Below, one piece after another: positions 23,692-64,000 of a stretch of 64,000 nt of DNA (position 1 is the first letter of the stretch; each line of letters begins with the position of its first letter). The notes beneath the pieces were generated by a model that searched no databases, was not told the DNA's origin, and worked only from the letters and a program-made list of their open reading frames with translations. The position numbers and the translations under genes were made by a program. This DNA comes from Streptomyces sp. NBC_01294 (GTDB lineage Bacteria > Actinomycetota > Actinomycetes > Streptomycetales > Streptomycetaceae), in assembly GCF_035917235.1 (NCBI RefSeq), contig NZ_CP108423.1, positions 3,971,001-4,035,000 on the forward strand, given 5' to 3'.

Positions 23692-24191
23692 CCACCGACG
23701 CCGCGACGACCCGCCTGGAGGCGGAGCTGGCCGAGCTGGCCGGCTCCGTCCCCGACCCCGAGCTGCCCGTGCTCACCCTGGGCGAGCTGGGCGTGGTGCG
23801 CGGGGTGCGAATGCACGAGGACGGCCACGCCGAGGTCACCCTCACCCCCACGTACACCGGCTGCCCGGCCATCGAGGCCATGTCGGCCGACATCGAGCGG
23901 GCCCTGACCGGTCACGGCATACCCCAGGTGCGGGTGACCACCGTGCTGGCCCCCGCCTGGTCCACCGACGACATCAGCGCCGAGGGCCGCCGCAAGCTCG
24001 CCGAGTTCGGCATCGCCCCGCCCCGGCCGCACGCGGCCGGCGGGCCGGTCCCGATCGCCCTGTCGGTCCGCTGCCCCCACTGCGGATCGACCGACACCGA
24101 ACTGCTCAGCCGGTTCTCCTCCACCGCATGCAAGGCGCTGCGCCGCTGCACCGCCTGCCGCGAACCGTTCGACCACTTCAAGGAGCTCTAG
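23685..24191 (+). CDS. paaD: Phenylacetyl-CoA epoxidase assembly factor PaaD
   Basis: 168 aa. N-terminal DUF59/MIP18 domain (VPDPELPVLTLGELG, TPTYTGCPA) implicated in iron-sulfur or metal loading of the epoxidase. A C-terminal zinc-ribbon has cysteine pairs CPHC and CTAC. The ATG at 23685 overlaps paaC; GTG 23688 is an alternative. Confidence 0.93.
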   Translation: MVTTDAATTRLEAELAELAGSVPDPELPVLTLGELGVVRGVRMHEDGHAEVTLTPTYTGCPAIEAMSADIERALTGHGIPQVRVTTVLAPAWSTDDISAEGRRKLAEFGIAPPRPHAAGGPVPIALSVRCPHCGSTDTELLSRFSSTACKALRRCTACREPFDHFKEL

Positions 24192-49826: not shown

Positions 49827-52800
49827 TCAGTGCGACCGGCGGTGCTCCGGCAGACCCATGAAGTCGAATAATTCCTCCGCCGCGGCGCGGTGGCCGGCCG
49901 CGGTCTCCGCGTCGCCCAGCGCCTCGGCCGCCCGGGCGAGCCCCACCAGCGCGAACGCCTCCTCGGAGCGGAAGCTCATCGGCGCCGCGATCTTGTAGGC
50001 CTGGGCGTGCAGGGCCAGCGCCTCCTCGTGTTCCCCCCACGTCATGTGGAGCTGGCCGAGGACGTTCACGACCTTCGCCAGCCGGATCGGGGCACCGCTC
50101 GTCCGCCCGAGGACCAGGGCGCGCTCGGCGAACGCGCGCGCCTGCGAACCGTCGCCCCGCTGCTCCGCGACCTGGGCGGACAGCGCGAACACCAGGGCGA
50201 CGTCCCCGGGCGACCTGGTCTCGTCGCACAGGTCACGGGCACGCTTCAGGCTCTCGTGGGCGTCCGCGTCCTCGCCGAGGCCCACGTGGGCGAAGGCCAG
50301 GTCGGTCAGGGCCATGATCTCGTTGACCGGGTCACCGCCGACGTCGAGCGCCTGGCGGGCGGCGGCGGCCGCCTCCGGATAGCGGCCCCACCGCTCGTAC
50401 AGCGTGCTGAGGATGGTCAGGGCCTCGGCCTCCGCGCGCGGATTGCCCAGTTCCCGGGCCATGGCGACGGCCCGCTCCAGCAGGGGCAGCGCCTCTTCGT
50501 ACCTCCCGAGCATCGACATCAGCAGCCCGATGGTCGACTCGCTGTGCGCCTCGGTGTGCCGGTCCCCGGCGCGCACCGCGGTGTCGCGCGCCTCCGTGGC
50601 CACCTCCAGCCCTTCCTCGAAGCGGCCGAGCTTCCAGCAGGCGGCGCCCAGGTTGGCCAGGCTGATGCCCAGCAGTGCCGGGTCGTCGAGCCGGCGGGCG
50701 GCGGCGACCGCGAGGTGCCCGACGCTCCAGAACTCGTCGAGCTGTCCGTGCGCGTGCAGGTGGAAGCCGACGTTGCGGCTCAGACAGGCCGCGTACCGGT
50801 CGTGGCCACACCGCTCGGCGAGCGACACGGCGGCGAGCAGTCCCGCCTGTTCCCGGTCGAACCAGCTCACGGCCTGGTCGGCGTTCCTGAAGTACGGCCG
50901 CTCGCCGTGGTAGGGCGGGATGCCGGTGGGCCGGCGCTCACGGCCGGGGAAGAGCATCTCGCAGGCCGCGTTCGAGGTCGTCAGGTAGTAGCCGAGCAGC
51001 CGCTCGACCGCCGCGGCGTCGTCGGCCGCCGTCGCCGGGCCCCGCAGGCTCTGGGCGAAACTGCGCACCAGGTCGTGGAAGGTGTAGAGGCCGATGTCGG
51101 GCTGCTGCACGAGGTGGACGTCGAGCAGGAACTCCAGGGCGTCCTCGGCGTCGCGGACCGCCGTGCCGAGGAGCGCCGCCGCCGAGTGCACGTCCGTACC
51201 GGCGCACGGGTACAGGCTCAGGATGCGGAAAGCGGTGCGGTACTCCTCGTCCATCGCCAGGTACGACAGGCGCAGGGTCGCCGCGACGCTGCGCTCGCCC
51301 GAGCTGAGCTCGTCCATCCGGCGCGTCTCGTCGCGCAGCCGCTCGACCAGGTAACGCACCGTCCAGCGCGGCCTGTTGCGCAGCCGGGCGGTCGCGATCC
51401 GCAGGGCCAGCGGCAGGTGGCCGCACAGCTCGGCCAGTTCGGCGGACGCCTCCGGTTCGGCGCCCACCCGGTTCGTGCCGAGCGTCTCGGTCATCAGGCT
51501 GGTGCTGTCCTCGGGCTCCATCATCCCGATGGACACCCACTCGACGCCGTCGAGGTCCAGCAGCCGCCCCCGGCTCGTGATCAGCACCAGACAGCCGGGC
51601 GAAGCGGGCAGCAGGGGCCGGATCTGCGCGGCGTCGACCGCGTTGTCGCACAGGAGCAGCATCCGCCGGCCGTCCAGCCTCGAGCGCCACAGGCCGGTAC
51701 GGCCCTCCAGGTCCTCGGGGATGCGGTCGCCGGGTGTCCCGAGGGCCCGCAGCAGGCTGTCGAGCGCGGCGGCGGGCGTCACGGGCTGGCGGCCCGGGGT
51801 GAATCCGTGCAGGTCGATGTGGAGCTGCCCGTCGGGATACCGCGGGGCCAGGTGGTGGGCGGCGCGGACCGCCAGGGTGGTCTTGCCCATGCCGCCCATG
51901 CCGTCGATGGCGACGATCCGGGAGTGCCGCTCGCCGCCCCGGCCCTCATCCTGGGCGTAGTCGAAGAGTTCGGCCAGTTCCTTGACGCGGCCGGTGAAGT
52001 CGGGGAGGTCGTACGGCAGGGTGCACGGGGCGTCGGCGGGTGCGGGGGCCGCGTCCCCCGGCGGGGCCGGGGACAGCGGCTGGGACTGCGGCTGCTCTCG
52101 CGCCTGCCCGGGCACCGGCTGCGCACGGGCCGCGGGCTCGGGGGCCGCTTCCTCGGGCGCCGGCCGTACGGGGACCACCGCAGGCTCGGGCGCCGGCCGT
52201 ACGGGAGCGGCCGGTTCGGGCGCCGGGCGTACGGGGGCGGGCCGTTCGGGCGTGGCCAGTTCGGGGCTGTCCCGCAGGATCGCCTCGTACAGCCTGGCCA
52301 GCCGCGGTCCCGGATCGATCCCGAGTTCGTCCACGAGGAGCCCGCGGACCTCCCCGTACTCCTTGAGCGCCTCGGCCTGCCGTCCCGAGCGGTACAGGGC
52401 GAGCATCAGCTGGCCGCGCAGCGTCTCCCGCAGCGGGTGCCGGGTGATCAGTTCGCGCAGGCCGGAGATGAGTTCACCGCTCTCGCCCAGTGCCAGGCAC
52501 AGGTCGAAGAGCTGCTCGGCGGCCGCCAGCCGGCGTTCCTCCAGCGCCGTCGCCGCGGCCTCGATCACCGGTCCGCCCACGCCCGACAGGACGGAGCCCC
52601 GCCACAGCGCGAGCGCGGCCCGCAGGAGGTCGGCGGCCTCGGACTGCCGGCCCTGCCGCACGGCCCGGGCCGCGTCCTTGGTCAGCGCGTCGAACTCCAG
52701 GAGGTCGACCTGGTCGTCCGCCACCACCACGCGGTATCCCGGCCCGTCGGTGACGATCACCTCGGTCCCGTCCGGTATGCGCCGCCGCAGGTCGGCGACG

Positions 52801-53054
52801 GCCTTGCGGACCTGGTGCGCCGCGGTCACCGGCGGGTCGTTCTCCCAGGTCGCCTGCACGAGCCGGGCGACGGGCACCACCCGGCCGGCTTCGAGGAGCA
52901 ACATGCACAGGACCCGTTCCTGGATCGATCCCCCCAGCCGCAGCCGTTTCTCGTCGACCCAGCCCTCAAGTGACCCCAGCACGTTGAAGCGCGTCCTGTC
53001 CCCCACAGGATCCACGCTCCGTCTCTCCCCGGAATCCGAATCCGCCCCCGGCAT
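49827..53054 (-). CDS. AfsR/SARP-type STAND regulator
   Basis: 1075 aa. OmpR-like winged-helix DNA-binding domain (about residues 25-100), bacterial transcriptional activation domain (about 110-255), and a Pro/Ala/Glu-rich linker with repeated RPAPEP units (about 265-340). An NB-ARC ATPase domain follows with Walker A GMGGMGKTTLAVR near 390 and MLLLCDNAVDAA. C-terminal TPR-like repeats run from about 700. Such regulators activate specialised metabolism, often downstream of Ser/Thr kinases. ATG 53054 chosen; a longer start at 53111 is possible. Divergent from a second STAND gene, 176 bp apart. Confidence 0.9.
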   Translation of the reverse strand: MPGADSDSGERRSVDPVGDRTRFNVLGSLEGWVDEKRLRLGGSIQERVLCMLLLEAGRVVPVARLVQATWENDPPVTAAHQVRKAVADLRRRIPDGTEVIVTDGPGYRVVVADDQVDLLEFDALTKDAARAVRQGRQSEAADLLRAALALWRGSVLSGVGGPVIEAAATALEERRLAAAEQLFDLCLALGESGELISGLRELITRHPLRETLRGQLMLALYRSGRQAEALKEYGEVRGLLVDELGIDPGPRLARLYEAILRDSPELATPERPAPVRPAPEPAAPVRPAPEPAVVPVRPAPEEAAPEPAARAQPVPGQAREQPQSQPLSPAPPGDAAPAPADAPCTLPYDLPDFTGRVKELAELFDYAQDEGRGGERHSRIVAIDGMGGMGKTTLAVRAAHHLAPRYPDGQLHIDLHGFTPGRQPVTPAAALDSLLRALGTPGDRIPEDLEGRTGLWRSRLDGRRMLLLCDNAVDAAQIRPLLPASPGCLVLITSRGRLLDLDGVEWVSIGMMEPEDSTSLMTETLGTNRVGAEPEASAELAELCGHLPLALRIATARLRNRPRWTVRYLVERLRDETRRMDELSSGERSVAATLRLSYLAMDEEYRTAFRILSLYPCAGTDVHSAAALLGTAVRDAEDALEFLLDVHLVQQPDIGLYTFHDLVRSFAQSLRGPATAADDAAAVERLLGYYLTTSNAACEMLFPGRERRPTGIPPYHGERPYFRNADQAVSWFDREQAGLLAAVSLAERCGHDRYAACLSRNVGFHLHAHGQLDEFWSVGHLAVAAARRLDDPALLGISLANLGAACWKLGRFEEGLEVATEARDTAVRAGDRHTEAHSESTIGLLMSMLGRYEEALPLLERAVAMARELGNPRAEAEALTILSTLYERWGRYPEAAAAARQALDVGGDPVNEIMALTDLAFAHVGLGEDADAHESLKRARDLCDETRSPGDVALVFALSAQVAEQRGDGSQARAFAERALVLGRTSGAPIRLAKVVNVLGQLHMTWGEHEEALALHAQAYKIAAPMSFRSEEAFALVGLARAAEALGDAETAAGHRAAAEELFDFMGLPEHRRSH

Positions 53055-53229: not shown

Positions 53230-54678
53230 GTGGGAAGACTGGAGAGACCGCTGGCCCCCGATGCCGGACCAGTCACCGCGTTCGCCCGGGAGTTGCGCAG
53301 GCTGCGGGCCGCGGCCGGCAGTCCCGGCTACCGCGACATGGCCACGCGGGCCATGTTCTCCGCCTCGGTGCTCTCCGACGCGGCCGCCGGATACCGCCTC
53401 CCGACCCTTCAGGTGGCCCTCGCCTTCGCGGAGGCCTGTGGCGGGGACCGCGCCGGCTGGGAGCGCCGCTGGCACGAGGCGGCGCGCGCCGAGGGCGATG
53501 ACGGAGCGGCCCGGCCGGCGGCCAAGGCCGTCCAGCAGCACCAGGAGAACGAGCTGCGCGCCGCCGGCGTGCGCGCCGTCCTGCCGCCGCCCGCCCAGCT
53601 GCCGATGGAGCCCCACCCGCTGGTGGGACGGGGTGCACTGCTCCAGCAGGCCAGGGCCATGACGGCCCCTTCGTATGGTGAACAGCGCGCCGTCGCCCCC
53701 CTCGTGATCAGTGGTCAGGTCGGCGCGGGCAAGACCGCCTTCGCCCTGCGGCTCGCCCACGAGCTCGCCGTGAACCTGCCCGACGGGCAGCTCTACGCGA
53801 ACCTGGACCCGGCCGCGGACGGACGCAAGGACGCCGCCGGGATCGCGGGCGGCTTCCTGGAGGCGCTCGGCATCCCCGCCGACCGCATCCCGAACGACCC
53901 CGGGCAGCGGATCGGCCTGTACCGCTCGCTGCTCAACCGGCGGCGGCTGCTCGTGGTGCTGGACGGCGTCCAGCACGAGCGCCAGGTACGGGAGCTGCTC
54001 ATCGCGGCGCCCGAGAGCCGCATCATCATCACCAGCCGCTCCCGGCTGCTGGGCCTCGACGGAATTGGCCGGATCCGGCTGCCCGCCCTGGACCGCGACG
54101 AGTCGATGGAGCTGCTCGCGCAGCTGCTGGGCGGCGACCGGGTCGGCACCGAGCCGCGCGCCTGCCTGCGCCTCGCCGATGCCTGCGGGGACCTGCCGCT
54201 GGCGCTGAACCTGGCCGGCCGGCGCATCGCGGCCCGGCCCGAGTGGATGCTCCAGGACGCCGTGTCCGAGCTGCTCGGCGACGGACGGCCGGAGCCCGGC
54301 CGGTTCCTGAGACGGCTGCAGGTCGGGGACGACTCCCTGAGCGTCCGCCTCGACAGCGCCTACCGGCTGCTGACCCCGTGGGCCCGGCTGATGCTGCGCC
54401 AGTTCGCCGACTCGGACAACCCGCCCTCCGTGGACAACGTCGTGTACGAGTCCGCGGACGCGCTCGCCGTCCTGGTCGAGCGGTCCGCCCAGCCGGTGGA
54501 GGACCTCCTCGAACGGCTCCTCGACGCGGGCCTGCTCGACCACTCCGACCTGCCGGTGCAGTACGGACTGACCCCGATGGCCCGGGCCTTCGCGCTGGCC
54601 CAGCCGGACCCTACGGAGGAGGCGCCGGCGCCCGCCGCCCGCCCCGGGGCGCCCGTGCACGCGCGGCTCCCGCGGTAG
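53230..54678 (+). CDS. XRE-type HTH fused to NB-ARC ATPase
   Basis: 482 aa. N-terminal helix-turn-helix (about residues 14-90, FARELRRLRAAAGSPGYRDMA, LPTLQVALAFAEACGG), linker, then NB-ARC domain with Walker A SGQVGAGKTAF near 160, Walker B LLVVLDGVQ and RIIITSRSRLLGLDG. Unlike typical STAND proteins, it has no C-terminal TPR/WD sensor after the winged helix and ends with a Pro/Ala tail. GTG follows AAAGGAG. It is convergent with the accessory operon and divergent from the AfsR-like gene; it is probably their local regulator. Confidence 0.85.
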   Translation: MGRLERPLAPDAGPVTAFARELRRLRAAAGSPGYRDMATRAMFSASVLSDAAAGYRLPTLQVALAFAEACGGDRAGWERRWHEAARAEGDDGAARPAAKAVQQHQENELRAAGVRAVLPPPAQLPMEPHPLVGRGALLQQARAMTAPSYGEQRAVAPLVISGQVGAGKTAFALRLAHELAVNLPDGQLYANLDPAADGRKDAAGIAGGFLEALGIPADRIPNDPGQRIGLYRSLLNRRRLLVVLDGVQHERQVRELLIAAPESRIIITSRSRLLGLDGIGRIRLPALDRDESMELLAQLLGGDRVGTEPRACLRLADACGDLPLALNLAGRRIAARPEWMLQDAVSELLGDGRPEPGRFLRRLQVGDDSLSVRLDSAYRLLTPWARLMLRQFADSDNPPSVDNVVYESADALAVLVERSAQPVEDLLERLLDAGLLDHSDLPVQYGLTPMARAFALAQPDPTEEAPAPAARPGAPVHARLPR

Positions 54679-54700: not shown

Positions 54701-55687
54701 TCATGTCTTCCTCGCGTCGTAGGTGATCGTGACGTAGAGGTGTTCGTCGAGGATCTTCGACAGGGGAATGCCGGGCCGGCCGAGACGGGCGCACAGGGCC
54801 ACCTCGTCCGTGCCGCCGGCCTCCGCGAGCGCCGCACGCGCCCAGCTCCGGCCGATCCGCAGGTGGCGGCCGAAGGCCGCCCCGTCGCGGGCCCCGTGGA
54901 GCCGGTCGGCGATGGCCGCGTCCCAGGGCATGACCGAGGCGGGGCGCAGGGCGTACAGCGCCTTGGAGGCGGCGGTCGGGCCGAGGCTGCGGCGGCCGAT
55001 CGGCAGGGCCGCCAGTTCCTCGTAGGCCCGGACGAACCGGGCGATGTCGCGCGGGGTGAGCCCGGCCAGCGGTGCGTCCGGCAGGCGGTGGCGTCCCCAC
55101 CAGGCGGCGAGCCCCTCGCCGAACAGGTCGGGCTCGCCCTCGCGCGGGTAGCGGATCCGGCAGCCCCAGGAGTTCAGCCAGCGGTGCAGGGCCGTGCGGT
55201 GCCCGGCGTCGGAGAGGTCGAGGGCGCCCGCCGTCTCCTCGCGCAGCGCCAGCCAGCTGCGGTCGACTCCCGCGAACCCGTTGAACACCTCGGCCGAGGC
55301 CTCCAGTTCGGCCAGGGTCGGGGCGGGCGGGGGCTCCGGTGCGGCGGGCGGGTCCAGGTGCTCGCGGGCGACCCGGGCCGGCACCACCATCCGCCAGGCC
55401 TCGGTCACCAGCTCCGTCAGCTCGTCCAGGTCCAGGGCCGGGAGCCTGGCCTCCACCCAGTGGAACCGCAGGTCGGACTCGCGCGGCAGGAAGAACTTCT
55501 CCGGCTCGGCGGCGACGAGCGCCGCCCGCTCCTCCTTGGGGAAGGCGAAGCCCAGTTCGCTCTCGTCCCGGGAGAGCGCCAGATAGACGATCTGGCCGAT
55601 CCGGAACTTCACCCGGTCCCGGATCAGGTGCTCCTCGGTCCTGGGCAGGGCGAGCGCGAGCCGCCGTACGTCGTGCACCGTGACCAC
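54701..55687 (-). CDS. MmcQ/YjbR-like domain fused to an unknown C-terminal domain
   Basis: 328 aa from GTG 55687, which follows GGAGGAGG; GTG 55720 (overlapping the upstream stop by 4 bp) would add 11 residues. Residues 1-105 match the MmcQ/YjbR fold (TVHDVRRLALALPRTEEHL, FRIGQIVYLALSRDE, WVEARLPALD). Residues of about 150-328 form a separate helical domain containing RWLNSWGCRIRYPREGEP and ASKALYALRPASVMPWDAAI, which I do not recognise. Last gene of the accessory operon. Function unknown. Confidence 0.75.
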   Translation of the reverse strand: MVTVHDVRRLALALPRTEEHLIRDRVKFRIGQIVYLALSRDESELGFAFPKEERAALVAAEPEKFFLPRESDLRFHWVEARLPALDLDELTELVTEAWRMVVPARVAREHLDPPAAPEPPPAPTLAELEASAEVFNGFAGVDRSWLALREETAGALDLSDAGHRTALHRWLNSWGCRIRYPREGEPDLFGEGLAAWWGRHRLPDAPLAGLTPRDIARFVRAYEELAALPIGRRSLGPTAASKALYALRPASVMPWDAAIADRLHGARDGAAFGRHLRIGRSWARAALAEAGGTDEVALCARLGRPGIPLSKILDEHLYVTITYDARKT

Positions 55688-55716
55688 CGTGTCCTCCTCC
55701 ACTTCCGGCCGCCGGC

Positions 55717-56862
55717 TCACAGGCCCGCGAGCTGCGGGGCGTGGACGTCCAGCGGTGGCCCGTCGAGCGCGCCGAGGCCGATCAGCGACGGACTCCTGCC
55801 GGTCAGCCGGTCGGCCAGCGACCGTGCGATGAGCGGCGCGAACTTGAAGGATGTGCCACCGCAGGCCGCGTACGCGTATCCCGCGCCGCCTAGGGCGACC
55901 AGCAGCGGGCCGCCGGTCTCGGTGAAGGACGTGTAGTAGGCGTCCTTGGCGGCGGTGACCCAGGCCGGGCCGAAGCCGGGGAGGATGTCCCCGAACTCCT
56001 TCTCCAGCTTGCGCTGCCAGTACGGGTCGGTGGCGTAGTCGGTGATGTCGTCCACCACCCGGCAGGCGGTGGCCGAGGTCAGTTTGAGGGCCGTGCCCGC
56101 CACCGGCGGGATCAGCCAGGCCCCGCCCCTGGTGCCCAGGGCCGGGATGGCCGGGGTGGCCGCCCAGGCCCGCGCCTGGTTGCGGGGCACCCGGCAGTAG
56201 AGGAGGGACTGCCGGTGCAGGGTCAGCCGTTCCGCGACGGCCTGCGGCAGCAGGCCCCGGGACCAGGGCCCCACCGCCACGAGCACCGCGTCACCGTGCA
56301 GCACCCGCCCGTCCACCAGCCGTACGCTGCCGCTCTCGCCGTCCACGGCGGTCACGGCCCGGTGCTCGATCAGCTCGATGCCCCGCTGCCACTTCAGCCA
56401 GCCGACACAGGCGGCCAGGACGCGTTCGGCGAGCAGGACCCCCGCCTCGTCCTCGAGCACCGCGCCGAGACCGCCGTCCACGTGCAGGTGCGGATAGCGG
56501 TCGGACAGGCCGGCCGCCGTCAGCTCCCTCGCGCTGCCCCCGGCGTCGCCGAGCATCGCCGCGCCGTCCGCCGCCGCCGCGGGCGGCAGCACGGTGAGCG
56601 CGCCGACCTGCTCGTAGAACCGCGTCAGGAAGAGCTCTTCCAGTTCGACCCAGCGGCGGTGTGCCCGCAGCGCGGCCTCCGTGGTCCGCGGATCCGCGGG
56701 GTGCAGGGCCCGCAGGATCCGGTGCTGGTCGAAAGAGGTGGCTCTGCTGTGCGGGATGGGGCCTTGGTCCACGACCGTGACCTTGTGTCCTTCGAGCACG
56801 CACTCGACCGCCGTGAGCAGGGCGATCACACCGCCGCCCACTACCGTCACCCTCGCCGACAT
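55717..56862 (-). CDS. FAD-dependent amine/amino acid oxidase (DAO family)
   Basis: 381 aa. Dinucleotide-binding motif VTVVGGGVIALLTAVECVLE at residues 5-24, then HSRATSFDQHRI and LVALGGAGYAYAACGGTSFK near the C-terminus, like SolA/monomeric sarcosine oxidase and glycine oxidase. It likely oxidises a C-N bond of an amino acid or N-methyl amino acid to an imine. ATG 56862 with AGGAGG 4 bases upstream. In the operon it lies between an ATP-grasp ligase and the YjbR-type gene and would be a tailoring enzyme. Confidence 0.85.
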   Translation of the reverse strand: MSARVTVVGGGVIALLTAVECVLEGHKVTVVDQGPIPHSRATSFDQHRILRALHPADPRTTEAALRAHRRWVELEELFLTRFYEQVGALTVLPPAAAADGAAMLGDAGGSARELTAAGLSDRYPHLHVDGGLGAVLEDEAGVLLAERVLAACVGWLKWQRGIELIEHRAVTAVDGESGSVRLVDGRVLHGDAVLVAVGPWSRGLLPQAVAERLTLHRQSLLYCRVPRNQARAWAATPAIPALGTRGGAWLIPPVAGTALKLTSATACRVVDDITDYATDPYWQRKLEKEFGDILPGFGPAWVTAAKDAYYTSFTETGGPLLVALGGAGYAYAACGGTSFKFAPLIARSLADRLTGRSPSLIGLGALDGPPLDVHAPQLAGL

Positions 56863-56898
56863 CACACACCTCCTTTCCGTGTTCCGATGGCCTGTGGG

Positions 56899-58161
56899 TC
56901 AGCTGTCGAGGACGATCGTGGTCAGCGCCGTCGCCTTGGCGAGGGACTCCTCGCAGCTCAGCGGGGAGTCGCCGGCGCAGATCACGTTGGCGTACCGGCT
57001 GAGGTAGCCCTCCGGCGGCAGCAGCAGCGAGGTGCCTGGCCGGACCATGACGTTCGCCTCCAGCAGCCCCGGGCTGTCCGGGAGGGAGGGCACGTCGACC
57101 GAGCGGACCGTGCCGTTGCGGTGCGGGTAGAGGAAGCGGATGCCCACGGTGCGGGCCCTGGCCGGCGTCCACGCGGGCCGGCTGCCGGTGGCGACCTCGA
57201 CGGCCACCTCGCCCGGCTCGATCCCGGTGGCGAGACTGCCGAGGTACGGGATGAGGTCGCCGCCCAGCCGGGCGTTCACCTCGATGATCACCGGGCCGCG
57301 GGAGGTCAGCTTCACCTCGGTGTGGGTGATCCCGTAGCCGATGCCCAGGGCGCGGTGGGCTTCCCCGAGTACGCCGAGCAGTTCCTCGTCGGCCAGCAGC
57401 GGGTCGGTGGCGCTGACCATGTGCCCGGTCTCCTCGAAGTAGGGCTCCAGGCCCACTTCCTTGTGCGCGAGGAAGAGCGGGGTCCAGCTGCCGTCGAAGA
57501 CCGCTCCGTCGATGCTGATCTCGGGTCCCATGACGCATTCCTCGACCAGCACCCCGCCCTCGTAGGCGCTGTTCCCGCCGTGGCTGGCGGTGTCCGCGAC
57601 CTCGAAGGCCGCGCGGACCGCCTCGGGTCCGTCGACCCGGATGACGCCGATGCTCGCCCCCATGCCGCGGGGCTTGAGCACGACCGGGTAGCCGAAGGAG
57701 TCGGCCGCGGCGAGCGCCTCCCCGGCGTCGGTCACGCAGGCGAAGTGCGGCTGCGGCAGCCCGGCGGCGGTCAGCAGTTGCCGGGTGTTGTGCTTGTTGC
57801 GGCAGTTGTCGGCGCCCCGCGGGGTCAGGCCGGGCAGTCCGAGCCGTTCGGCGATGAGCGCGGTGGTCACCACGAGCGTCTCGTCGTAGCTGAACACCCC
57901 CACCACCCGGTGCTCGGCGGCCACCGCCTCGGCGGCCGCGATCAGCGCCTCCTGGTCGGGCACCAGGCGTTCCCGGTCGAGCAGTTCGACCGTGGTGGAG
58001 CCGATGACGTACTGCGTCTGCCAGGTCGGCTCCGCCGCGTCCAGGATCCAGATCGGGCGTCGGCGGGCCGCGCCCGCGAGCAGGTACTCGCGGTAGGCCT
58101 GCTGTCCGCTGCCGACCAGGATCACCACGCCGTCATCGGTCACGTTGGCGTCATCAGTCAT
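56899..58161 (-). CDS. ATP-grasp ligase (amino acid ligase-like)
   Basis: 420 aa. N-terminal Rossmann-like domain (DDGVVILVGSGQQAYREYLL), a middle domain with KHNTRQLLTAAGLPQP and ATP-binding YPVVLKPRGMGASIGVIRV, and the metal-binding VIIEVNARLGGDLIPYLGS near residue 295. It resembles BacD/carboxylate-amine ligases that make dipeptides or amides with ATP via an acyl phosphate. ATG 58161 with GAGG 9 bases upstream, 5 bp after the YbaK-like gene. It is likely a core bond-forming enzyme of the cluster. Confidence 0.85.
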   Translation of the reverse strand: MTDDANVTDDGVVILVGSGQQAYREYLLAGAARRRPIWILDAAEPTWQTQYVIGSTTVELLDRERLVPDQEALIAAAEAVAAEHRVVGVFSYDETLVVTTALIAERLGLPGLTPRGADNCRNKHNTRQLLTAAGLPQPHFACVTDAGEALAAADSFGYPVVLKPRGMGASIGVIRVDGPEAVRAAFEVADTASHGGNSAYEGGVLVEECVMGPEISIDGAVFDGSWTPLFLAHKEVGLEPYFEETGHMVSATDPLLADEELLGVLGEAHRALGIGYGITHTEVKLTSRGPVIIEVNARLGGDLIPYLGSLATGIEPGEVAVEVATGSRPAWTPARARTVGIRFLYPHRNGTVRSVDVPSLPDSPGLLEANVMVRPGTSLLLPPEGYLSRYANVICAGDSPLSCEESLAKATALTTIVLDS

Positions 58162-58166
58162 GTTCG

Positions 58167-58670
58167 TCACCTCGCGGAGTGGGTCAGGACCCGGTCCCCG
58201 GCCGTCGCGATGGCCGCGACCTGCGGCGTGGCGATGGCCAGGTAGTCGGGGGTGGACAGGGCCACGGAGCGGTCCAGGCGGGCCGCGTTGAAGTAGAGCT
58301 CTTCGGTGAGGATCAGGCCCTCGTCGACGACGAGGTGCAGATCGGGATGGAAGCTCAGCGGCATCACCGTGCCGCAGACGCTGCCGGCCAGCCGCTCGGC
58401 GATCTCGGGGGTGGCGAAGGCCGTGCGGCCCCCGCCGAACAGCGCGGCGACCGCGTCCAGGTCGACCTGCCGGTCCCCGGGCACCACCGCGAGCACGTAC
58501 TTGCCGACCCGCTTGGTGATGCTGACGCGGACGATGATGCACTTGGCGGCCTGCTCCAGCGGGTGGCCGCGCAGGACGCTCGCCAGGTCCGTCCGGCCCT
58601 CGGCCGGGTGGTCGATCAGCCGGTAGCGGGCCCGGTGCCCGTCGAGGAGGTCGATCAGCCGCTGGTACAT
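58167..58670 (-). CDS. YbaK/ProX-like aminoacyl-tRNA deacylase
   Basis: 167 aa. The YbaK/EbsC fold is clear: RYRLIDHPAEGRTDL, conserved Lys in QAAKCIIVRV near residue 42, YVLAVVPGDRQVDLDAVA near 58, and GTVMPLSFHPDLHLVVDEG near 100. Family members hydrolyse mischarged tRNAs carrying amino acid analogues. Its ATG shares one base with the stop of the solute-binding gene (TGATG). In this operon it may protect translation from a nonproteinogenic amino acid made by the pathway (inference). Confidence 0.85.
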   Translation of the reverse strand: MYQRLIDLLDGHRARYRLIDHPAEGRTDLASVLRGHPLEQAAKCIIVRVSITKRVGKYVLAVVPGDRQVDLDAVAALFGGGRTAFATPEIAERLAGSVCGTVMPLSFHPDLHLVVDEGLILTEELYFNAARLDRSVALSTPDYLAIATPQVAAIATAGDRVLTHSAR

Positions 58671-60448
58671 CACCGCTCCTCGCCGACGTAGTGCCAGTCC
58701 TCGGGGTTGATCAGCCCGAAGGGGTTGACCGGGGCCACGCCCTGGAGGTCCTTGGCGACCTCCAGCAGCCGGAAGGGGAAGTTCGGCATCCAGATGACCG
58801 GGACCTGCTGCGCGATGTGGTCCTGGTAGGCGTAGAGGTCCTCCAGGTCGTCGCTGACCACCGTGCGGGCGATCAGCTCGTCCGCCTTCGGGTCGCTGTA
58901 GCTGCCGAAGTTGACCGAGGAGCCGGTCGAGTACAGGGCCTCTCCGGTCGGGTAGAAGCCGGGGCCGTAACCCCACCCGCCGTTCCAGTCGCTGAACTCC
59001 CACAGGCAGGGGCTGTCGGGGCCCGGCGTGCAGGTGGTGTCCTCCAGGACCAGGACGCTCGCCTCGACCTCGGTCAGCACGATCTCGATGCCGGCCCGTG
59101 CGGCGTCGGCGGCGAACTTCCGCATGACCTCGGTCAGGGTCTCGTGCCCCTTGGCGTACCGCATCGAGAACCGCAGCGGGGTGCCGGCGGGAATGCCCTC
59201 GCCCGCCTCCCCGGGTCCGGTGCCCTCGCGGACGCACGTACCCGGGGTGGAGCTGGTGTCCCAGCCGTTCTCGGTCAGGAAGCGGCGGGCCGCGTCGACG
59301 TCGAAGGGGTACGGGTCCCCGTGCGCGGCGGGCGAGAGGAGCGGGCTGTCCGGCAGCGCCGGGATGGGCCCGGTCGTCGGGTAGCCGTAGCCCTTGTAGA
59401 CGTCGCGGATGGCGCCCCGGGAGTCGAGGCAGGACTGCAGGGCCTGGCGGAAGTAGAGCTGCTTGAAGATCTTTCCGGCGACCGTCGGGTTGTTGAAGTT
59501 GATCGGGAAGTAATGGATCTTGTAGGTGAGCTGGGGCACGAGATCGTAGTGCTCGCCCAGCGGATTGGGGCCGCCGCGCTGCGGGTCCTCGGCCGGCTCG
59601 GTGACCTCGTCGAAGGGCAGGAAGCCGATCTGCACGCCGTCGAGCGCGTCCGGGCCGCGGCGGAGCATCTCGTACTGCTCGGTGTCCGAGGCCGTGGGCA
59701 CCAGCCGGAACTCGTCCAGGTAGGGCTTGTTGGGGCCCGAGTAGCTCTCGTTGGGCACCAGGACGGCCTCGCCCGAGACCCCGTCGATGGTGTAACTGCT
59801 CAGCTTCCAGGGACCGTTGACCACGCTCCACACCGGGCTGGTGTCCCAGCTCTTGCGCTCGTCGTTGCAGGCCCGCAGGTAGGCGTAGACCGCGGAGGCC
59901 TGCGCCGGGTCGTGGGTGGCGTCGGCCGGCCGGTCGTCGCCGGTGCGGTCCCATGCCCTGGGCAGCGGGGTGATGGTGCTGAACTGGTTCATCAGCACCC
60001 AGTTGTGCGAGTAGGCGCGGTCGAAGGTGAAGCTGACCTTGTCGTCGGCGACCTTCTCGTAGCCGGCCAGGTTGTCCGGGAAGAAGCCCGGCGTGTAGCC
60101 GCCGAAGCTGTCCTTCTCGGCCTCCAGGAGGTGCATCCACAGCATCACGTTGTCGGCGTCGACCGTCTCGCCGTTGGACCACTTGTAGGGCTTGACGGTG
60201 ATCGTCGCCGTCAGGCCGTCCTCGCTCCACTGCGGCGGCTCGGCCAGGCTGCGCTCGTAGTCGACCGTCGGCTGGCCGCCGCTGCCGTACCAGTACAGCG
60301 GGCGGTACATCAGCGTCTGGAACTCGTGCAGGTTGGCCACCCCGTAGTACTCGCCGGGGGTGAACGGGAAGATGAAGACCGGGCTGAAGCCGCTGGTGCA
60401 GGCCCAGGTCACGCTGCCCCCGCGGAGCGGGGTGGTGGGCGGGGTCAT
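58670..60448 (-). CDS. Family-5 peptide solute-binding protein without signal peptide
   Basis: 592 aa. The SBP_bac_5 (DppA/OppA-like) fold is evident: LAEPPQWSEDGLTATITVKP, YKWSNGETVDADNVMLWM, SGPNKPYLDEFRL, FRQALQSCLDSRGAIRDVY and a C-terminal WMPNFPFRLLEVAKD. Yet it begins MTPPTTPLRGGSVTWACTSG with no signal peptide or lipobox, and no ABC permease or ATPase genes are nearby. ATG 60448 has GGAGG 7 bases upstream and a 4-bp overlap with the preceding stop, so no longer start is likely. It may be a cytoplasmic binding or enzyme-like protein. Confidence 0.82.
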   Translation of the reverse strand: MTPPTTPLRGGSVTWACTSGFSPVFIFPFTPGEYYGVANLHEFQTLMYRPLYWYGSGGQPTVDYERSLAEPPQWSEDGLTATITVKPYKWSNGETVDADNVMLWMHLLEAEKDSFGGYTPGFFPDNLAGYEKVADDKVSFTFDRAYSHNWVLMNQFSTITPLPRAWDRTGDDRPADATHDPAQASAVYAYLRACNDERKSWDTSPVWSVVNGPWKLSSYTIDGVSGEAVLVPNESYSGPNKPYLDEFRLVPTASDTEQYEMLRRGPDALDGVQIGFLPFDEVTEPAEDPQRGGPNPLGEHYDLVPQLTYKIHYFPINFNNPTVAGKIFKQLYFRQALQSCLDSRGAIRDVYKGYGYPTTGPIPALPDSPLLSPAAHGDPYPFDVDAARRFLTENGWDTSSTPGTCVREGTGPGEAGEGIPAGTPLRFSMRYAKGHETLTEVMRKFAADAARAGIEIVLTEVEASVLVLEDTTCTPGPDSPCLWEFSDWNGGWGYGPGFYPTGEALYSTGSSVNFGSYSDPKADELIARTVVSDDLEDLYAYQDHIAQQVPVIWMPNFPFRLLEVAKDLQGVAPVNPFGLINPEDWHYVGEER

Positions 60449-60780
60449 CTCGGTACCTCCTCCAATGCGGATTCGCCGCTGTCCGCGTGGGCGCCGTAGC
60501 GCTCCCAGCGCTCGTTGAGCCGGATCCGTCCGTCGTCCAGGAACTCGGGGGTGCTCCAGCACCGCCCGGCGACCACCTCGCCGTCCGCGAGGACCATCGT
60601 GTAGGCGAATTCGAGGTTCCCGTCGGGCTCCACGCGCCCGTTCAGCGAGCCCCGGCGGACCGGACCTCCGTCGAAGTCCGCCCAGAGCAGGTCGCCTTCC
60701 TGGCGGTAGTGGCCGACGGGGGCGTCCTGGTCGGACGGGTAACCGGTGTTGCGGAAACTCCTGCCGTCGTAGTCGATCAC
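60445..60780 (-). CDS. Small conserved protein (often labelled N-acetylglutamate synthase-like)
   Basis: 111 aa from GTG 60780, which overlaps the upstream stop by 4 bp. IDYDGRSFRNTGYPSD start, then HYRQEGDLLWADFDGGPVRRG and DGRIRLNERWERYG. Proteins of this type occur widely in bacteria under an N-acetylglutamate synthase label that has little experimental basis. It looks like a small beta-barrel, lipocalin-like. Its stop overlaps the solute-binding gene by 4 bp. Role unknown. Confidence 0.75.
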   Translation of the reverse strand: MIDYDGRSFRNTGYPSDQDAPVGHYRQEGDLLWADFDGGPVRRGSLNGRVEPDGNLEFAYTMVLADGEVVAGRCWSTPEFLDDGRIRLNERWERYGAHADSGESALEEVPR

Positions 60781-61601
60781 CGGTGTCGTATCTCCTGAGT
60801 GCAGCATTTGACCGCGCCGCCGGCCTTCAGCAGTTCCGACATGTCCACGCCGTGCGGCTCGAAGCCGCGTGCGCGCAGCTCATCGATCAGGTCCGTGGCG
60901 GTCTCCGTCAGGACCACGTTCAGTCCGTCGCTCACCGCGTTCAGACCGAAGGCCTCGGCATCGTCCCGGGTGGCGAGGATCGCGTCCGGGTACAGCTCCC
61001 GCAGCACCTCCCTGCTCTCTTCGGAGAAGGCGGCGGGGTAGTACGCCACCAGGTCGTCGTCGAGGACGCACAGCGCGGTGTCCAGGTGGTAGAAGCGCGG
61101 GTCGGTCAGGGTCAGGCCGACCACCGGAAGGCCGAAGAACGCGCGGAGCTCCTCGTGTGCGACGGGGTCGCTGCGGAATCCCGCGCCGGCCAGGACGCGC
61201 CGGCCGGCCGGGGCGAAGTCCCCCTCGCCCTCGTTGACGTGTTCCGGGACGAGGACCTCGCCGTAGCCGCGGTCCGCGAACCAGGCGCGGTACGCGTCGG
61301 CCTCGGCGGCCCGCTCCTGGTGGCGGAACTTCGCGATCAGCACCTTGTCGTCGATCACCGTGGCGCCGTTGGCGGAGAACACCATGTCCGGCAGGCCCTC
61401 GACCGGGTCGATGTACGAGACCTCGTGTCCGAAGCCGAGGTACAGGTCCCGAATCCGCTCCCACTGGGCCAGCGCGAGGCCCGCGTCCATCGGCTTGTCC
61501 GGGTTCATCCACGGGTTGATCGCGTAGCTCACCTCGAAGTGGGTGGGCCGGCACATCAGGTAGTACCGCTTCGTGGACCGCCGCTCCGTCGGCTCAGCCA
61601 T
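60777..61601 (-). CDS. DDAH-like hydrolase (guanidine-modifying family)
   Basis: 274 aa of the dimethylarginine dimethylaminohydrolase/arginine deiminase superfamily. Conserved points are VSYIDPVEGLPDMVFSANGA (substrate Asp and Asn), HVNEGEGDF, catalytic His in DPRFYHLDTALCVL near residue 170, and nucleophile Cys in GAVKCCTQEIR near 267. It hydrolyses a guanidine (methylarginine, hydroxyarginine or arginine-like) or acts on a related substrate. It overlaps the upstream ATP-grasp gene by 8 bp and the downstream gene by 4 bp. Probably supplies or tailors an arginine-derived building block. Confidence 0.85.
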   Translation of the reverse strand: MAEPTERRSTKRYYLMCRPTHFEVSYAINPWMNPDKPMDAGLALAQWERIRDLYLGFGHEVSYIDPVEGLPDMVFSANGATVIDDKVLIAKFRHQERAAEADAYRAWFADRGYGEVLVPEHVNEGEGDFAPAGRRVLAGAGFRSDPVAHEELRAFFGLPVVGLTLTDPRFYHLDTALCVLDDDLVAYYPAAFSEESREVLRELYPDAILATRDDAEAFGLNAVSDGLNVVLTETATDLIDELRARGFEPHGVDMSELLKAGGAVKCCTQEIRHR

Positions 61602-62847
61602 GTTCCGGCCTCATCTCCGTACGGATGCGGGTGGCCAGGACGTGGGCCGTGGTCAGCGCCTCCGTCAGGGAGGTGCCGGTGGCCCCGAGGAAGCCGAGGA
61701 TGGTGTTGCCCGCCGGCGGCCGCTTGACGACGGTCCCCGGCCCGGCCGTGATCTTGAGGAAGAACACCGCGGGGTCCTCGGCGACGTCGGCCGGCACCTC
61801 GATCGACTCGACCGTGCCCGCCCCGCTGATCAGGCACATCGCGGCGGTGTGCACGGACGTCGGCGCGTAGTGCGAGACGTCGGGCCGGGTGCCCCGGGCC
61901 ACGTCCACCACGCACTGGATGGGGTCGTGGCCCGCGCTGATCCGTGCCATGTGGTCGAGACCGCCGCCGCCGGGACGGATCGCGATCTCCAGGATGAACG
62001 GCTTGCCCTGGTGGAACCTCACCTCGGCGTGCAGCACCGACCGGCGCAGTCCCTGGGCGTGCGCCGCGTCCCGGACCACCTCGTGGACGGCGGCCACCTG
62101 CTCGGGGGTCAGGGAGCTCGGCGCGTGGTGGACGTCGTCGTCGAAGGTCCCGCTCTCGACGGTGATCCGGTCCACGATGGAGCCGAGGTACACCTCGTCG
62201 TCCCAGGCCAGCGCCTCGATGAGGTGCTCGTGGCCGTCGAGGTAGCCCTCGATGATGATCCCGTTCGGCCCCAGGTCCAGGCCGTCCGCCTCCATCAGCG
62301 CCCAGGACATGGTCTCGATGCCCCGGGTGGCGTCCTCGAAGCGGGCGCGCATCTCCTCGGCGTCGTCGACCTTGAACACGAAGTTGCTGGCCGCGCCCAG
62401 GGTCGGCTTGAGGATCAGCGGGTAGCCCAGCTCCGCGCCGGCGGCCACCGCGGCCTCGGCGTCGGGGGCGTAGCGGAAGCCGGGGTGGGCCGCGCCGCCG
62501 CGCTCGTGCGCCTGGCGCATCAGCAGCTTGTTGCGGCTGGTCCGGGCGGCTTCGAACCCGATGGTCGGCAGTCCCAGCGCGTCGGCGACGACCGCGACCG
62601 TGACGACCCCGGACTCCGAGAAGGTCAGGACCCCTTCGAACTCCTCCTCCGCGTGCCAGACCTTGGCGGCCGTGACGATGTCCTCGATGTGCTTGGATCC
62701 GGCGATCCGGTAGCGCTCCGCGTCCCAGAAGTCCTCGGTGCCCAGGCCGTTGAGCACGTAGACCTGTGCTCCGCGGTCCTGGATCTGCTGGTAGCGGGAG
62801 ACGTAGTAGGTGGCGTTCTGGCTGGCCTCGATGGCGAGCAGCTTCAT
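61594..62847 (-). CDS. ATP-grasp ligase
   Basis: 417 aa, second full ATP-grasp of the operon. MKLLAIEASQNATYYVSRYQ start, GVLTFSESGVVTVAVVADALG, RNKLLMRQAHERG, ATP site YPLILKPTLGAASNFVF and metal site FILEIAIRPGGGGLDHMARI near 300 (E-x-x-x-R in place of E-x-N-x-R). C-terminal region with PPAGNTILGFLGATG as in BacD/carbamoyl-phosphate-like amino acid ligases. ATG 62847, 14 bp after the MFS gene stop. It differs enough from the ligase at 56899 to suggest a different substrate pair. Confidence 0.85.
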   Translation of the reverse strand: MKLLAIEASQNATYYVSRYQQIQDRGAQVYVLNGLGTEDFWDAERYRIAGSKHIEDIVTAAKVWHAEEEFEGVLTFSESGVVTVAVVADALGLPTIGFEAARTSRNKLLMRQAHERGGAAHPGFRYAPDAEAAVAAGAELGYPLILKPTLGAASNFVFKVDDAEEMRARFEDATRGIETMSWALMEADGLDLGPNGIIIEGYLDGHEHLIEALAWDDEVYLGSIVDRITVESGTFDDDVHHAPSSLTPEQVAAVHEVVRDAAHAQGLRRSVLHAEVRFHQGKPFILEIAIRPGGGGLDHMARISAGHDPIQCVVDVARGTRPDVSHYAPTSVHTAAMCLISGAGTVESIEVPADVAEDPAVFFLKITAGPGTVVKRPPAGNTILGFLGATGTSLTEALTTAHVLATRIRTEMRPEHG

Positions 62848-62861
62848 CTCCGGTTCCCCCC

Positions 62862-64000
62862 TCAGACCTTGGCCGGGACCGGCTCGGCGACCACGGTCTC
62901 GGTGTCGGAGGCGGCGGACTCGGCGACCGGAGCGGCCTGCTCGGCGGCGGCGGCAGCCGCGACCTCGCGGTCGTGCTTGCGCAGGGAGATGACGGTGACG
63001 GTCGCGATGAGGGCCGTGAGCACGGACAGGGCGTAGAAGCCGTTGCGGACGTGGGTGGCGTCGACCAGGAGCGAGATCAGGACGACGGCCGTGGTGCCGG
63101 CCGCGAGGCCGAAGGCGTTGGTGGCGCCGAACACGAAGCCCGTGCGCTCCTCGGGCGCCGCGCTCATCAGGGCCGTACGGGCCGAGATGCGGGCCACGCA
63201 GAAGGCGATCGCCGCGAACGGGATGACGGCCATCATCGAGTAGAGGTGGATCGATTCCAGGACCAGGAGGACGGAGAAGGCGAGGTAGCCGATCAGGGCC
63301 GTCTTCAGGACGGTCGCCTTGGCGCTCAGCTTCTTGAAGGCCCACGCCGCGAACAGCGCGCCGATCCCGAACAGCGCGTCGACGATGCCGAGGTAGCCGG
63401 CGTTGGACTTGAAGCCCTCGATGACCAGGACCAGCATGATGCTGTTGCCGACGATGATCACGATGTTGCCGATGATGTAGAGCACCGCGAGGCGGGCCAG
63501 CGGGGCGCGGGCACTGGACAGCTTGGCGGCGGCGGCCGCCGCGGCCTTGGCCGCGGCCTCCGGGGCGCTGAGGACCACGTCGGCCGGACGGCGGCCCATG
63601 AAGAACAGCAGGGCGGCCGAGAGGAGGAAGGTGATGGCGTTGAAGTAGAACAGCGAGGTGGTGCCGACCCAGACGATCACCCAGCCGCCGAGGGCCGCCG
63701 AGGCGAGCGTGCCGCCCTGGATGGCGATCTCCGCGTTGCCGTTGAACTGGGCGAGCCGGGCCTCGGGGATGCGCTCCTTGATCAGGGCGTTGCTGGCCGG
63801 GAAGAAGAGCGCGGCCGAGATCGACAGGACGAAGCTGGCGACGTAGCTGACCGTGGACGGGTCACCGCCGAGGGCCAGCCAGATCGGCAGGCCGATCGCC
63901 GCGGCCGCACTGGCCAGGTCCGAGATCATCGCCAGCGTGCGGCGGTCGAAGCGGTCGGCGAGCTTGCCGAAGAAGAGGGAGAGCGCCACCTGCGGAATGG
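62862..64000 (-). CDS. MFS transporter (5' part beyond the window)
   Basis: At least 375 codons; the start lies outside the window. Repeated hydrophobic helices and the MFS loop motif GKLADRFDRRTLAMISD near the visible N-terminus. The segment FFPASNALIKERIPEARLAQ is typical of MFS drug/siderophore exporters of the enterobactin exporter/TetA-like group. Ala-rich C-terminal tail. It is followed 14 bp later by the ATP-grasp gene in the same direction, so it is likely the exporter or self-resistance pump of the cluster. Confidence 0.85.
   Translation of the reverse strand, partial: IPQVALSLFFGKLADRFDRRTLAMISDLASAAAAIGLPIWLALGGDPSTVSYVASFVLSISAALFFPASNALIKERIPEARLAQFNGNAEIAIQGGTLASAALGGWVIVWVGTTSLFYFNAITFLLSAALLFFMGRRPADVVLSAPEAAAKAAAAAAAKLSSARAPLARLAVLYIIGNIVIIVGNSIMLVLVIEGFKSNAGYLGIVDALFGIGALFAAWAFKKLSAKATVLKTALIGYLAFSVLLVLESIHLYSMMAVIPFAAIAFCVARISARTALMSAAPEERTGFVFGATNAFGLAAGTTAVVLISLLVDATHVRNGFYALSVLTALIATVTVISLRKHDREVAAAAAAEQAAPVAESAASDTETVVAEPVPAKV

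What the first reader, a model, noticed from the sequence alone, without database searches (positions are those of the whole stretch)
54701..64000. Candidate undescribed small-peptide or modified amino acid pathway
At least nine genes run leftward with overlaps of 1-8 bp or gaps of 5-36 bp: MFS pump, ATP-grasp, DDAH-like hydrolase, small conserved protein, signal-less SBP_5 protein, YbaK-like deacylase, second ATP-grasp, FAD amine oxidase, YjbR-type protein. Two ATP-grasp ligases plus a guanidine hydrolase and an amine oxidase suggest ATP-driven amide-bond formation on an arginine-derived unit with export. No PKS, NRPS, terpene or RiPP gene is visible, so standard mining rules may miss it. I do not recognise this gene combination.
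Basis: partly seen in the sequence, partly recalled or inferred. Interest (0 to 1): 0.78.

Follow-up and report, generated by a model that had tools for sequence, protein, structure and literature searches.

The report
Hydrazine-making peptide gene cluster beside oriC
This is half of a gene cluster that very probably joins two nitrogen atoms into a hydrazine and builds it into a small peptide without the usual peptide-assembly enzymes; the same set of genes recurs in several actinobacterial families and I found no described product for it.

Summary
The nine leftward genes are real, at the stated places, and tightly packed. The window cuts the operon off. Read on in the same genome, it continues with a MetRS-like protein, a zinc-type cupin and a lysine/ornithine N-hydroxylase: the known trio for hydrazine (N-N) formation. 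The FAD "amine oxidase" then fits the step that frees a hydrazino acid, and the two ATP-grasp proteins fit L-amino acid ligases.

The set is conserved: 20 of 38 MetRS-like loci carry ATP-grasp 1 plus the SBP_5 protein. All 20 also have the small protein, a second ATP-grasp and a DAO-type oxidase; 18 have a DDAH-like gene. They span 8 genera of 4 families.

Two parts are odd. The SBP_5 protein looks cytoplasmic: an export signal was detected in 1 of the 120 best relatives but in 17 of 20 ordinary ones. The small protein is modelled as avidin-like and occurs fused to SBP_5.

Verdict: a new variant of hydrazine synthetase clusters, product unknown.

The parts
54701..55702 (-). YjbR/MmcQ-domain protein with a C-terminal part without a Pfam match at cut-off
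   Evidence: PF04237 40.1 bits, cut-off 30.1; C-terminal piece has only one sub-threshold match. A YjbR-like stretch (45% identity or more over at least a fifth of the protein) lies in 18 of 38 related loci, 15 of the 20 core ones.
55717..56862 (-). FAD-dependent DAO-type oxidase; proposed to cleave or oxidise the hydrazine intermediate
   Evidence: PF01266 98.5 bits. Each of the 20 core loci has this type or a second PF01266 type, F7 (13 have F7 alone).
56899..58161 (-). ATP-grasp ligase 2 (L-amino acid ligase type)
   Evidence: PF13535 62.6 bits, PF18603 LAL_C2 38.7 bits
58167..58670 (-). YbaK-like aminoacyl-tRNA editing domain; proposed self-protection
   Evidence: PF04073 68.8 bits. In 6 of 20 core loci; the other 14 have a cation/proton antiporter gene.
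58670..60448 (-). SBP_5 (AppA/OppA-fold) protein without export signal; proposed cytoplasmic binder or catalyst
60445..60780 (-). Small protein modelled as an avidin-like 8-strand barrel
   Evidence: AF2 pLDDT 96.5; avidins head the Foldseek and VIA lists; natural fusions to SBP_5 in P0004 and P0020
60777..61601 (-). DDAH-like pentein-fold guanidine hydrolase
   Evidence: NF045659 dimethylargininase 430.9 bits, cut-off 300; H172 and C266 invariant in 21 rows
61594..62847 (-). ATP-grasp ligase 1 (L-amino acid ligase type)
   Evidence: PF13535 67.1 bits, PF18603 48.8 bits; nearest PDB BL00235 3.3e-27; in 25 of 38 related loci
62862..64000 (-). MFS exporter, cut by the window end (full gene to 64166 in extended coordinates). 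Upstream of it, outside the window and so not listed as parts: MetRS-like protein 64184-65803 (-), cupin 65800-66168 (-), lysine/ornithine N-monooxygenase 66229-67542 (-), and as a possible member the divergent second DDAH-like gene 67881-68747 (+)
   Evidence: MFS: PF07690 108.9 bits for the part inside the window, full gene. MetRS-like: PF09334 233.9 bits, below the NCBIfam MetRS cut-offs listed. Cupin: PF07883 52.5 bits, RHS1 5uqp match 2.1e-08, H48, H50, E54, H88 in 36 of 36. N-monooxygenase: PF13434 281 bits, nearest PDB PvdA 1.2e-71. Second DDAH: NF045659 439.8 bits, tree.

Best explanation
The operon (54701-67542 in extended coordinates) makes a small hydrazine-containing peptide without NRPS. 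Inferred order: (1) the monooxygenase N-hydroxylates lysine (or ornithine); (2) the MetRS-like protein activates an amino acid with ATP and puts it on the hydroxylamine oxygen; (3) the zinc cupin rearranges that ester into an N-N bond; (4) the DAO-type FAD oxidase oxidises a C-N bond next to the hydrazine, probably freeing a hydrazino acid as Spb39 does; (5) ATP-grasp 1 and 2 join amino acids to it; (6) the DDAH-like enzyme supplies or trims a guanidine-derived residue (citrulline or ornithine type); (7) the avidin-like protein and the signal-less SBP_5 protein together hold a peptide intermediate or product in the cytoplasm; (8) the MFS protein exports it and YbaK clears mischarged tRNA. Shown by sequence: gene identities, conserved catalytic residues, operon order, conservation. 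Inferred from described relatives: steps 1-4. Inferred only: steps 5-8 and the product. The confidence below is for a hydrazine-forming peptide pathway (steps 1-3 and 5), not for every step.
For: Trio identified by Pfam, NCBIfam and PDB matches. Cupin H48, H50, E54, H88 invariant in 36 of 36, with the spacing of PyrN H50/E56/H90 and of RHS1 D63/H65/E69 named in passages of PMC8664883. MetRS-like catalytic motifs kept (N15, H19, G21, H22; K336, S338; 36 rows); own MetRS elsewhere in the genome. Core set in 20 of 38 loci, 8 genera (titles). In 295 same-genus genomes all 9 SBP_5 matches of 59% or more lie in genomes with a MetRS-like match of 52% or more, 8 of 9 within 2.6-5.1 kb on one contig. 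L-amino acid ligase domains. Published precedent for stand-alone MetRS-like plus cupin pairs: RHS1, Afn8/Afn9.
Against: No metabolite or enzyme assay. The amino acid partner is unknown, and lysine versus ornithine was not settled. In 13 of the 20 core loci the oxidase is a different DAO-type family (F7), so step 4 may differ. No DDAH gene was found in 2 of 20 core loci. Of 38 MetRS-like loci, 18 lack the ATP-grasp 1 + SBP_5 pair (some cut by contig ends), and 6 of 15 same-genus genomes with a MetRS-like match of 49% or more lack this SBP_5, so the trio also serves other pathways. The ATP-grasp protein AzsJ of the azaserine cluster was judged probably not involved by its authors.
Confidence: 0.74

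Rival explanations
1. The hydrazine is only an intermediate: the FAD oxidase and other enzymes take it on to a hydrazone, diazo or azoxy warhead attached to an amino acid or peptide.
For: Hydrazone-to-diazo oxidation is reported downstream of homologous hydrazine enzymes (passages). Some related loci carry extra oxidases: TauD-type in 13 of 38. One Serratia locus carries an Ada-type O6-methylguanine-DNA methyltransferase nearby, as a DNA-alkylating product might need.
Against: The window's operon has only one oxidase besides the N-hydroxylase, and no carrier protein or TauD domain among its 12 genes by Pfam.
Confidence: 0.15
2. One reading: two ligases make an amide on an arginine-derived unit, with no N-N bond.
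For: DDAH-like and ATP-grasp genes are adjacent and overlap; DDAH in 18 of 20 core loci.
Against: The N-N-forming trio is in the same operon, and trio and ATP-grasp 1 stay together across genera. DDAH was not found in 2 of 20 core loci.
Confidence: 0.05
3. The N-hydroxylase feeds a hydroxamate siderophore, with SBP_5 as its receptor.
For: Nearest solved relatives of the N-hydroxylase are siderophore enzymes PvdA and MbtG (names; siderophore role recalled).
Against: No siderophore synthetase, acyltransferase or NRPS domain among the 12 genes; SBP_5 has no export signal; the cupin keeps the N-N-forming residues.
Confidence: 0.04

Closest known systems
s56-p1 pathway (Spb38 N-hydroxylase, Spb40 cupin-MetRS, Spb39 DAO oxidase)
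   Same: N-hydroxylase, MetRS-like plus cupin, DAO-family oxidase; product is a dipeptide with a hydrazone unit (passages; section part)
   Different: Here MetRS-like and cupin are separate genes, and DDAH-like, SBP_5, avidin-like and YbaK genes accompany two ATP-grasp ligases. The spb gene cluster itself was not available to compare.
RHS1 / PyrN hydrazine synthetases
   Same: Cupin residue pattern; stand-alone cupin plus MetRS-like protein as in Rhodococcus jostii RHA1
   Different: The RHS1 cluster was found through a saccharopine dehydrogenase-like gene and uses glutamate; here a DAO-type oxidase and ATP-grasp genes, partner amino acid unknown
Albofungin Afn8/Afn9/Afn18
   Same: Separate MetRS-like and cupin proteins with an N-hydroxylase
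   Different: Albofungin transfers hydrazine to an aromatic polyketide with an asparagine synthase-like enzyme; no PKS domain here
Azaserine cluster (azs)
   Same: N-hydroxylase, FAD oxidoreductase, cupin/MetRS, MFS and one ATP-grasp gene (passages)
   Different: azs has NRPS, carrier and acyl-CoA dehydrogenase proteins; no such domain among the 12 genes here
Negamycin and other KinJ-type hydrazine pathways
   Same: ATP-grasp genes lie in hydrazine clusters (neg, fzm) and peptide-like products are proposed (passages)
   Different: N-N bond made by a heme enzyme from nitrite; a KinJ relative was not searched for here
Clavulanic acid cluster (recalled, from no call)
   Same: OppA-like proteins beside an ATP-grasp ligase and a guanidine hydrolase
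   Different: Those OppA proteins are recalled as exported; no N-N chemistry

Membership tests
MetRS-like/cupin hydrazine synthetase | Class I MetRS-like protein that keeps catalytic motifs but is not the housekeeping MetRS | tested here: met
   PF09334 233.9 bits; under the listed NCBIfam MetRS cut-offs; motifs kept; true metG elsewhere, 495.2 bits
MetRS-like/cupin hydrazine synthetase | Cupin with the zinc-binding and catalytic residues of RHS1/PyrN | tested here: met
   H48, H50, E54, H88 in 36 of 36 cupins; RHS1 5uqp match 2.1e-08. HMMER's one-residue gap pairs H48/H50 one step off; I read the correspondence from the spacing, which equals PyrN's 50/56/90. Zinc binding itself not tested.
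MetRS-like/cupin hydrazine synthetase | Co-located lysine/ornithine N-hydroxylase | tested here: met
   PF13434 281 bits; of 38 loci, 34 have one at 40% identity or more, the other 4 one at 28-30%
MetRS-like/cupin hydrazine synthetase | Forms an N-N bond in vitro or in vivo | not testable with these tools
   Needs enzyme assay
s56-p1 type hydrazinoacetic acid pathway | DAO-family oxidase that cleaves the lysine-hydrazine adduct | tested here: inconclusive
Triacsin/azaserine-type clusters | PKS or NRPS and carrier proteins downstream of the trio | tested here: not met
   No such Pfam domain among the 12 operon genes
L-amino acid ligase (ATP-grasp) | ATP-grasp_4 with LAL C-terminal domain | tested here: met
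   Both proteins over cut-off for PF13535 and PF18603; nearest PDB are L-amino acid ligases for ATP-grasp 1 (ATP-grasp 2 not searched)
Dimethylargininase (DDAH) | Family score over curated cut-off and catalytic His/Cys | tested here: met
   430.9 against 300 bits; H172, C266 invariant in 21 rows, their catalytic role recalled. Nearest PDB are Sll1336 and Alr4995, recalled as arginine dihydrolases ArgZ and AgrE, so the reaction is open.
Extracellular SBP_5 transport lipoprotein | Export signal or lipobox | tested here: not met
   Detected in 0 of 20 locus relatives and 1 of the best 120 (P0054), against 17 of 20 ordinary relatives by the same rule
Avidin | Eight-strand avidin barrel | tested here: met
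Avidin | Biotin binding | not tested
   No pocket comparison was made
Hydroxamate siderophore (NIS) cluster | IucA/IucC synthetase or acyltransferase | tested here: not met
   No such Pfam domain among the 12 operon genes

The most novel reading that the evidence does not exclude
The avidin-like protein and the signal-less SBP_5 protein form one cytoplasmic unit, recruited from transport, that carries or catalyses a step on a reactive hydrazino-peptide, in the place a carrier protein would hold in NRPS pathways. The clusters would then be a large, unexplored class of ligase-made hydrazino-peptides in actinobacteria.
Probability: 0.35. Interest if true: 0.82.

Novelty: new variant of a known kind. 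Interest (0 to 1): 0.64.

Why it matters
N-N bonds are rare in biology and useful in drugs. This points to a recurrent cluster type (8 genera; the 120 best SBP_5 relatives are all 56% identical or more, and the 120 best small-protein relatives all 54% or more, though most were not placed in a cluster here) that would join hydrazines to amino acids with single ligases instead of NRPS. It also offers a testable case of a transport receptor fold turned into a cytoplasmic biosynthetic protein, and suggests a function for two cupins of solved structure named without one (4rd7, plu4264).

Tried and rejected
Rejected: the N-hydroxylase as a siderophore gene (no siderophore synthetase domain among the operon genes); the MetRS-like gene as the housekeeping MetRS; the idea that SBP_5 lost its signal through a wrong start call, since 20 locus relatives agree and most control proteins carry signals upstream. 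Left open: whether the divergent second DDAH-like gene (67881-68747, +) belongs to the cluster. It is beside the trio only in the four closest loci, yet groups with the cluster copies of other Streptomyces.

Led nowhere: the amino acid activated by the MetRS-like protein (no reference sequences of known specificity at hand); whether the DDAH-like enzyme makes citrulline or ornithine (the ArgZ and AgrE papers are not held); a name for the small protein's Pfam accession PF26421 (precomputed, no match in the held Pfam copy); the C-terminal part of the YjbR protein. In the SBP_5 protein a WNGGW motif (488-492) differs from ordinary relatives; meaning unknown.

Papers: ten searches, of which 41 and 45 served side questions. 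None of the titles and abstract starts listed showed a hydrazine cluster with ATP-grasp, DDAH, SBP_5 and the small protein together; one search listed only 20 of 188. Seen as passages: PMC11705231 (plus part 1 of 2 of its section 15), PMC8664883 (plus section 12), PMC13061610, PMC13274452, PMC12154649, PMC10445470, PMC11659421. The library lacks most subscription papers, among them the paper asked for (recalled as a review of these enzymes), so 'not described' is limited. The authors of PMC8664883 tested more than ten di-domain genes or stand-alone pairs; some may belong to this family.

Limits of counts: loci come from one scan with exact peptide words, 40 loci; L045 and L046 were dropped as short matches, leaving 38. 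Some loci are cut by contig ends (L025, L030, L036, L039, L041 among them). Gene calls are from my own simple GC-frame script, which failed on the two Serratia loci; presence counts use tblastn. One core locus, L020, scored for both oxidase types. The hydrophobicity mark alone passes only 12 of 20 controls, hence the combined rule; two of the three controls it misses look mis-started. One search used 26 of the 27 small-protein loci plus the window; one search used a chosen 36 sequences, one of which (L010) has a broken reading frame at its end.
Full report
OBSERVATION. The window is bases 3971001-4035000 of contig C1 of an 8.5 Mb genome; the closest loci found are from Streptomyces. The window stops inside the MFS gene.

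BEYOND THE WINDOW. Reading on, the operon has three more minus-strand genes: a 539-residue MetRS-like protein (64184-65803 in extended coordinates), a 122-residue cupin (65800-66168) and a 437-residue lysine/ornithine N-monooxygenase (66229-67542). A divergent second DDAH-like gene follows (67881-68747). The MetRS-like protein scores under the NCBIfam MetRS cut-offs listed, and the genome has its own MetRS elsewhere (495.2 bits against a cut-off of 336.35). The cupin matches the N-N-forming zinc cupin RHS1 (5uqp) at 2.1e-08 and two cupins of solved structure more closely, 4rd7 at 8.3e-47 and plu4264 at 6.3e-35. H48, H50, E54 and H88 are invariant in 36 of 36 cupins, the window genome's and those of 35 of 38 loci, with the spacing of PyrN H50, E56 and H90 (passages of PMC8664883). 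That paper reports that PyrN E56A and RHS1 E69A lose activity. Separate MetRS-like and cupin proteins are already known.

CONSERVATION. A scan of genome contigs (one genome for each of 84,980 species) with the MetRS-like protein returned 40 loci; two short matches were dropped. Of the 38 left, 25 have ATP-grasp 1 and 20 have ATP-grasp 1 plus the SBP_5 protein. Of these 20, all have the small protein, a second ATP-grasp and a DAO-type oxidase; 18 have a DDAH-like gene; 6 have YbaK and the other 14 an antiporter gene. YjbR-like stretches are in 15 of the 20. The 20 are from Streptomyces, Hamadaea, Saccharothrix, Actinosynnema, Streptosporangium, Planomonospora, Actinocrispum and Labedaea (titles). 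In all 20 the small protein lies before SBP_5 on the same strand, with 6-223 bases between the match ends. The oxidase is the window's DAO type in 7 of the 20 (one of which scored for both) and the F7 type alone in 13. The remaining 18 loci are six with TauD and NAD_binding_9-type proteins; four with cupin, MetRS-like, DAO, small protein and TauD (a formamidase-like family in three); two in Serratia; and six that are partial or variant.

LINKAGE TEST. In 295 genomes of the same genus, SBP_5 matches at E <= 1e-80 fall into two groups: 9 at 59-100% identity and the rest at 38% or less. All 9 genomes also have a MetRS-like match of 52% or more. In 8 of 9 the two lie 2.6-5.1 kb apart on one contig; the ninth genome is in about 1300 contigs and the two are on different ones. 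In the other direction, 15 genomes have a MetRS-like match of 49% or more, and 6 of them lack this SBP_5. So the SBP_5 protein keeps to the trio, while the trio is also used without it.

ENZYMES. The DDAH-like protein passes the NCBIfam dimethylargininase cut-off (430.9 against 300), and H172 and C266 are invariant in 21 rows. Its nearest solved relatives are Sll1336 and Alr4995, recalled as arginine dihydrolases. In a tree of 28 DDAH-like proteins the window's copy falls in a supported group of 7 cluster copies; the adjacent second copy groups with cluster copies of other Streptomyces; two further copies of the same genome fall outside (midpoint root). Both ATP-grasp proteins carry the L-amino acid ligase C-terminal domain.

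MECHANISM. From the described enzymes (PMC11705231 and PMC8664883): lysine is N-hydroxylated, the MetRS-like protein esterifies it with an activated amino acid, the cupin rearranges the ester to a hydrazine, and a DAO-type oxidase can cleave the lysine part to give a hydrazino acid (Spb39 in s56-p1). The rest is inference: the ATP-grasp enzymes add amino acids, the DDAH-like enzyme contributes or trims a guanidine-derived residue, the binding pair holds an intermediate, and MFS and YbaK protect the cell. The activated amino acid is unknown; published relatives use glycine, alanine, serine, glutamate or tyrosine.

WHAT IS NEW. The hydrazine synthetase is a known kind. The combination with two ligases, the DDAH-like enzyme, the signal-less SBP_5 and the avidin-like partner did not appear in the listings of my paper searches, within a library that lacks most subscription papers. 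Against full novelty: the azaserine cluster also has one ATP-grasp gene, and ATP-grasp genes accompany the unrelated KinJ hydrazine pathway. I therefore rate it a new variant of a known kind, with an orphan product.

Noticed in passing
extended window coordinates 73507-85539: gyrA, gyrB, recF, dnaN and dnaA follow the cluster: the operon lies about 16 kb from dnaA, mid-contig (4.0 of 8.2 Mb), so probably in the chromosome core and not in an arm.
   Followed up: partly
49827-53006 (-) and 53230-54678 (+): Two AfsR/SARP-like regulator genes lie next to the cluster's YjbR end (both under the AfsR cut-off); relatives of the second lie there in the four closest loci. Possible cluster regulators.
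   Followed up: partly
L035 13797-14684 and L042 15036-15923 (Serratia): In Serratia a 295-residue protein weakly like Peripla_BP_6 (28.2 bits in L035, under the 31.7 cut-off; 14.8 in L042) follows ATP-grasp 1: perhaps another binding-protein fold in a similar place.
   Followed up: partly
L035 15119-16183: An Ada-type O6-methylguanine-DNA methyltransferase gene lies among the hydrazine and ATP-grasp genes, as might be expected if a product alkylates DNA.
   Followed up: no
related loci L011, L017, L019, L028, L034, L036, L038, L041: An M1 aminopeptidase gene lies near the cluster in 8 of 38 loci: a peptide-processing step or a resistant target copy.
   Followed up: no
L028, L034, L038, L041 (ACP also in L027): Some clusters add a ketosynthase III-like gene, an acyl carrier protein and a protein of about 621 residues without a Pfam match in the one copy tested.
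   Followed up: no
PDB 4rd7 and 4mv2 (plu4264): Cupins of solved structure, named without a function, match the cluster cupin closely; they may be N-N-forming enzymes.
   Followed up: no
24082-24167 (-): ARAGORN tRNA-Ala of 86 bases lies antisense to a called gene 23685-24191 (+): probably a false positive.
   Followed up: no
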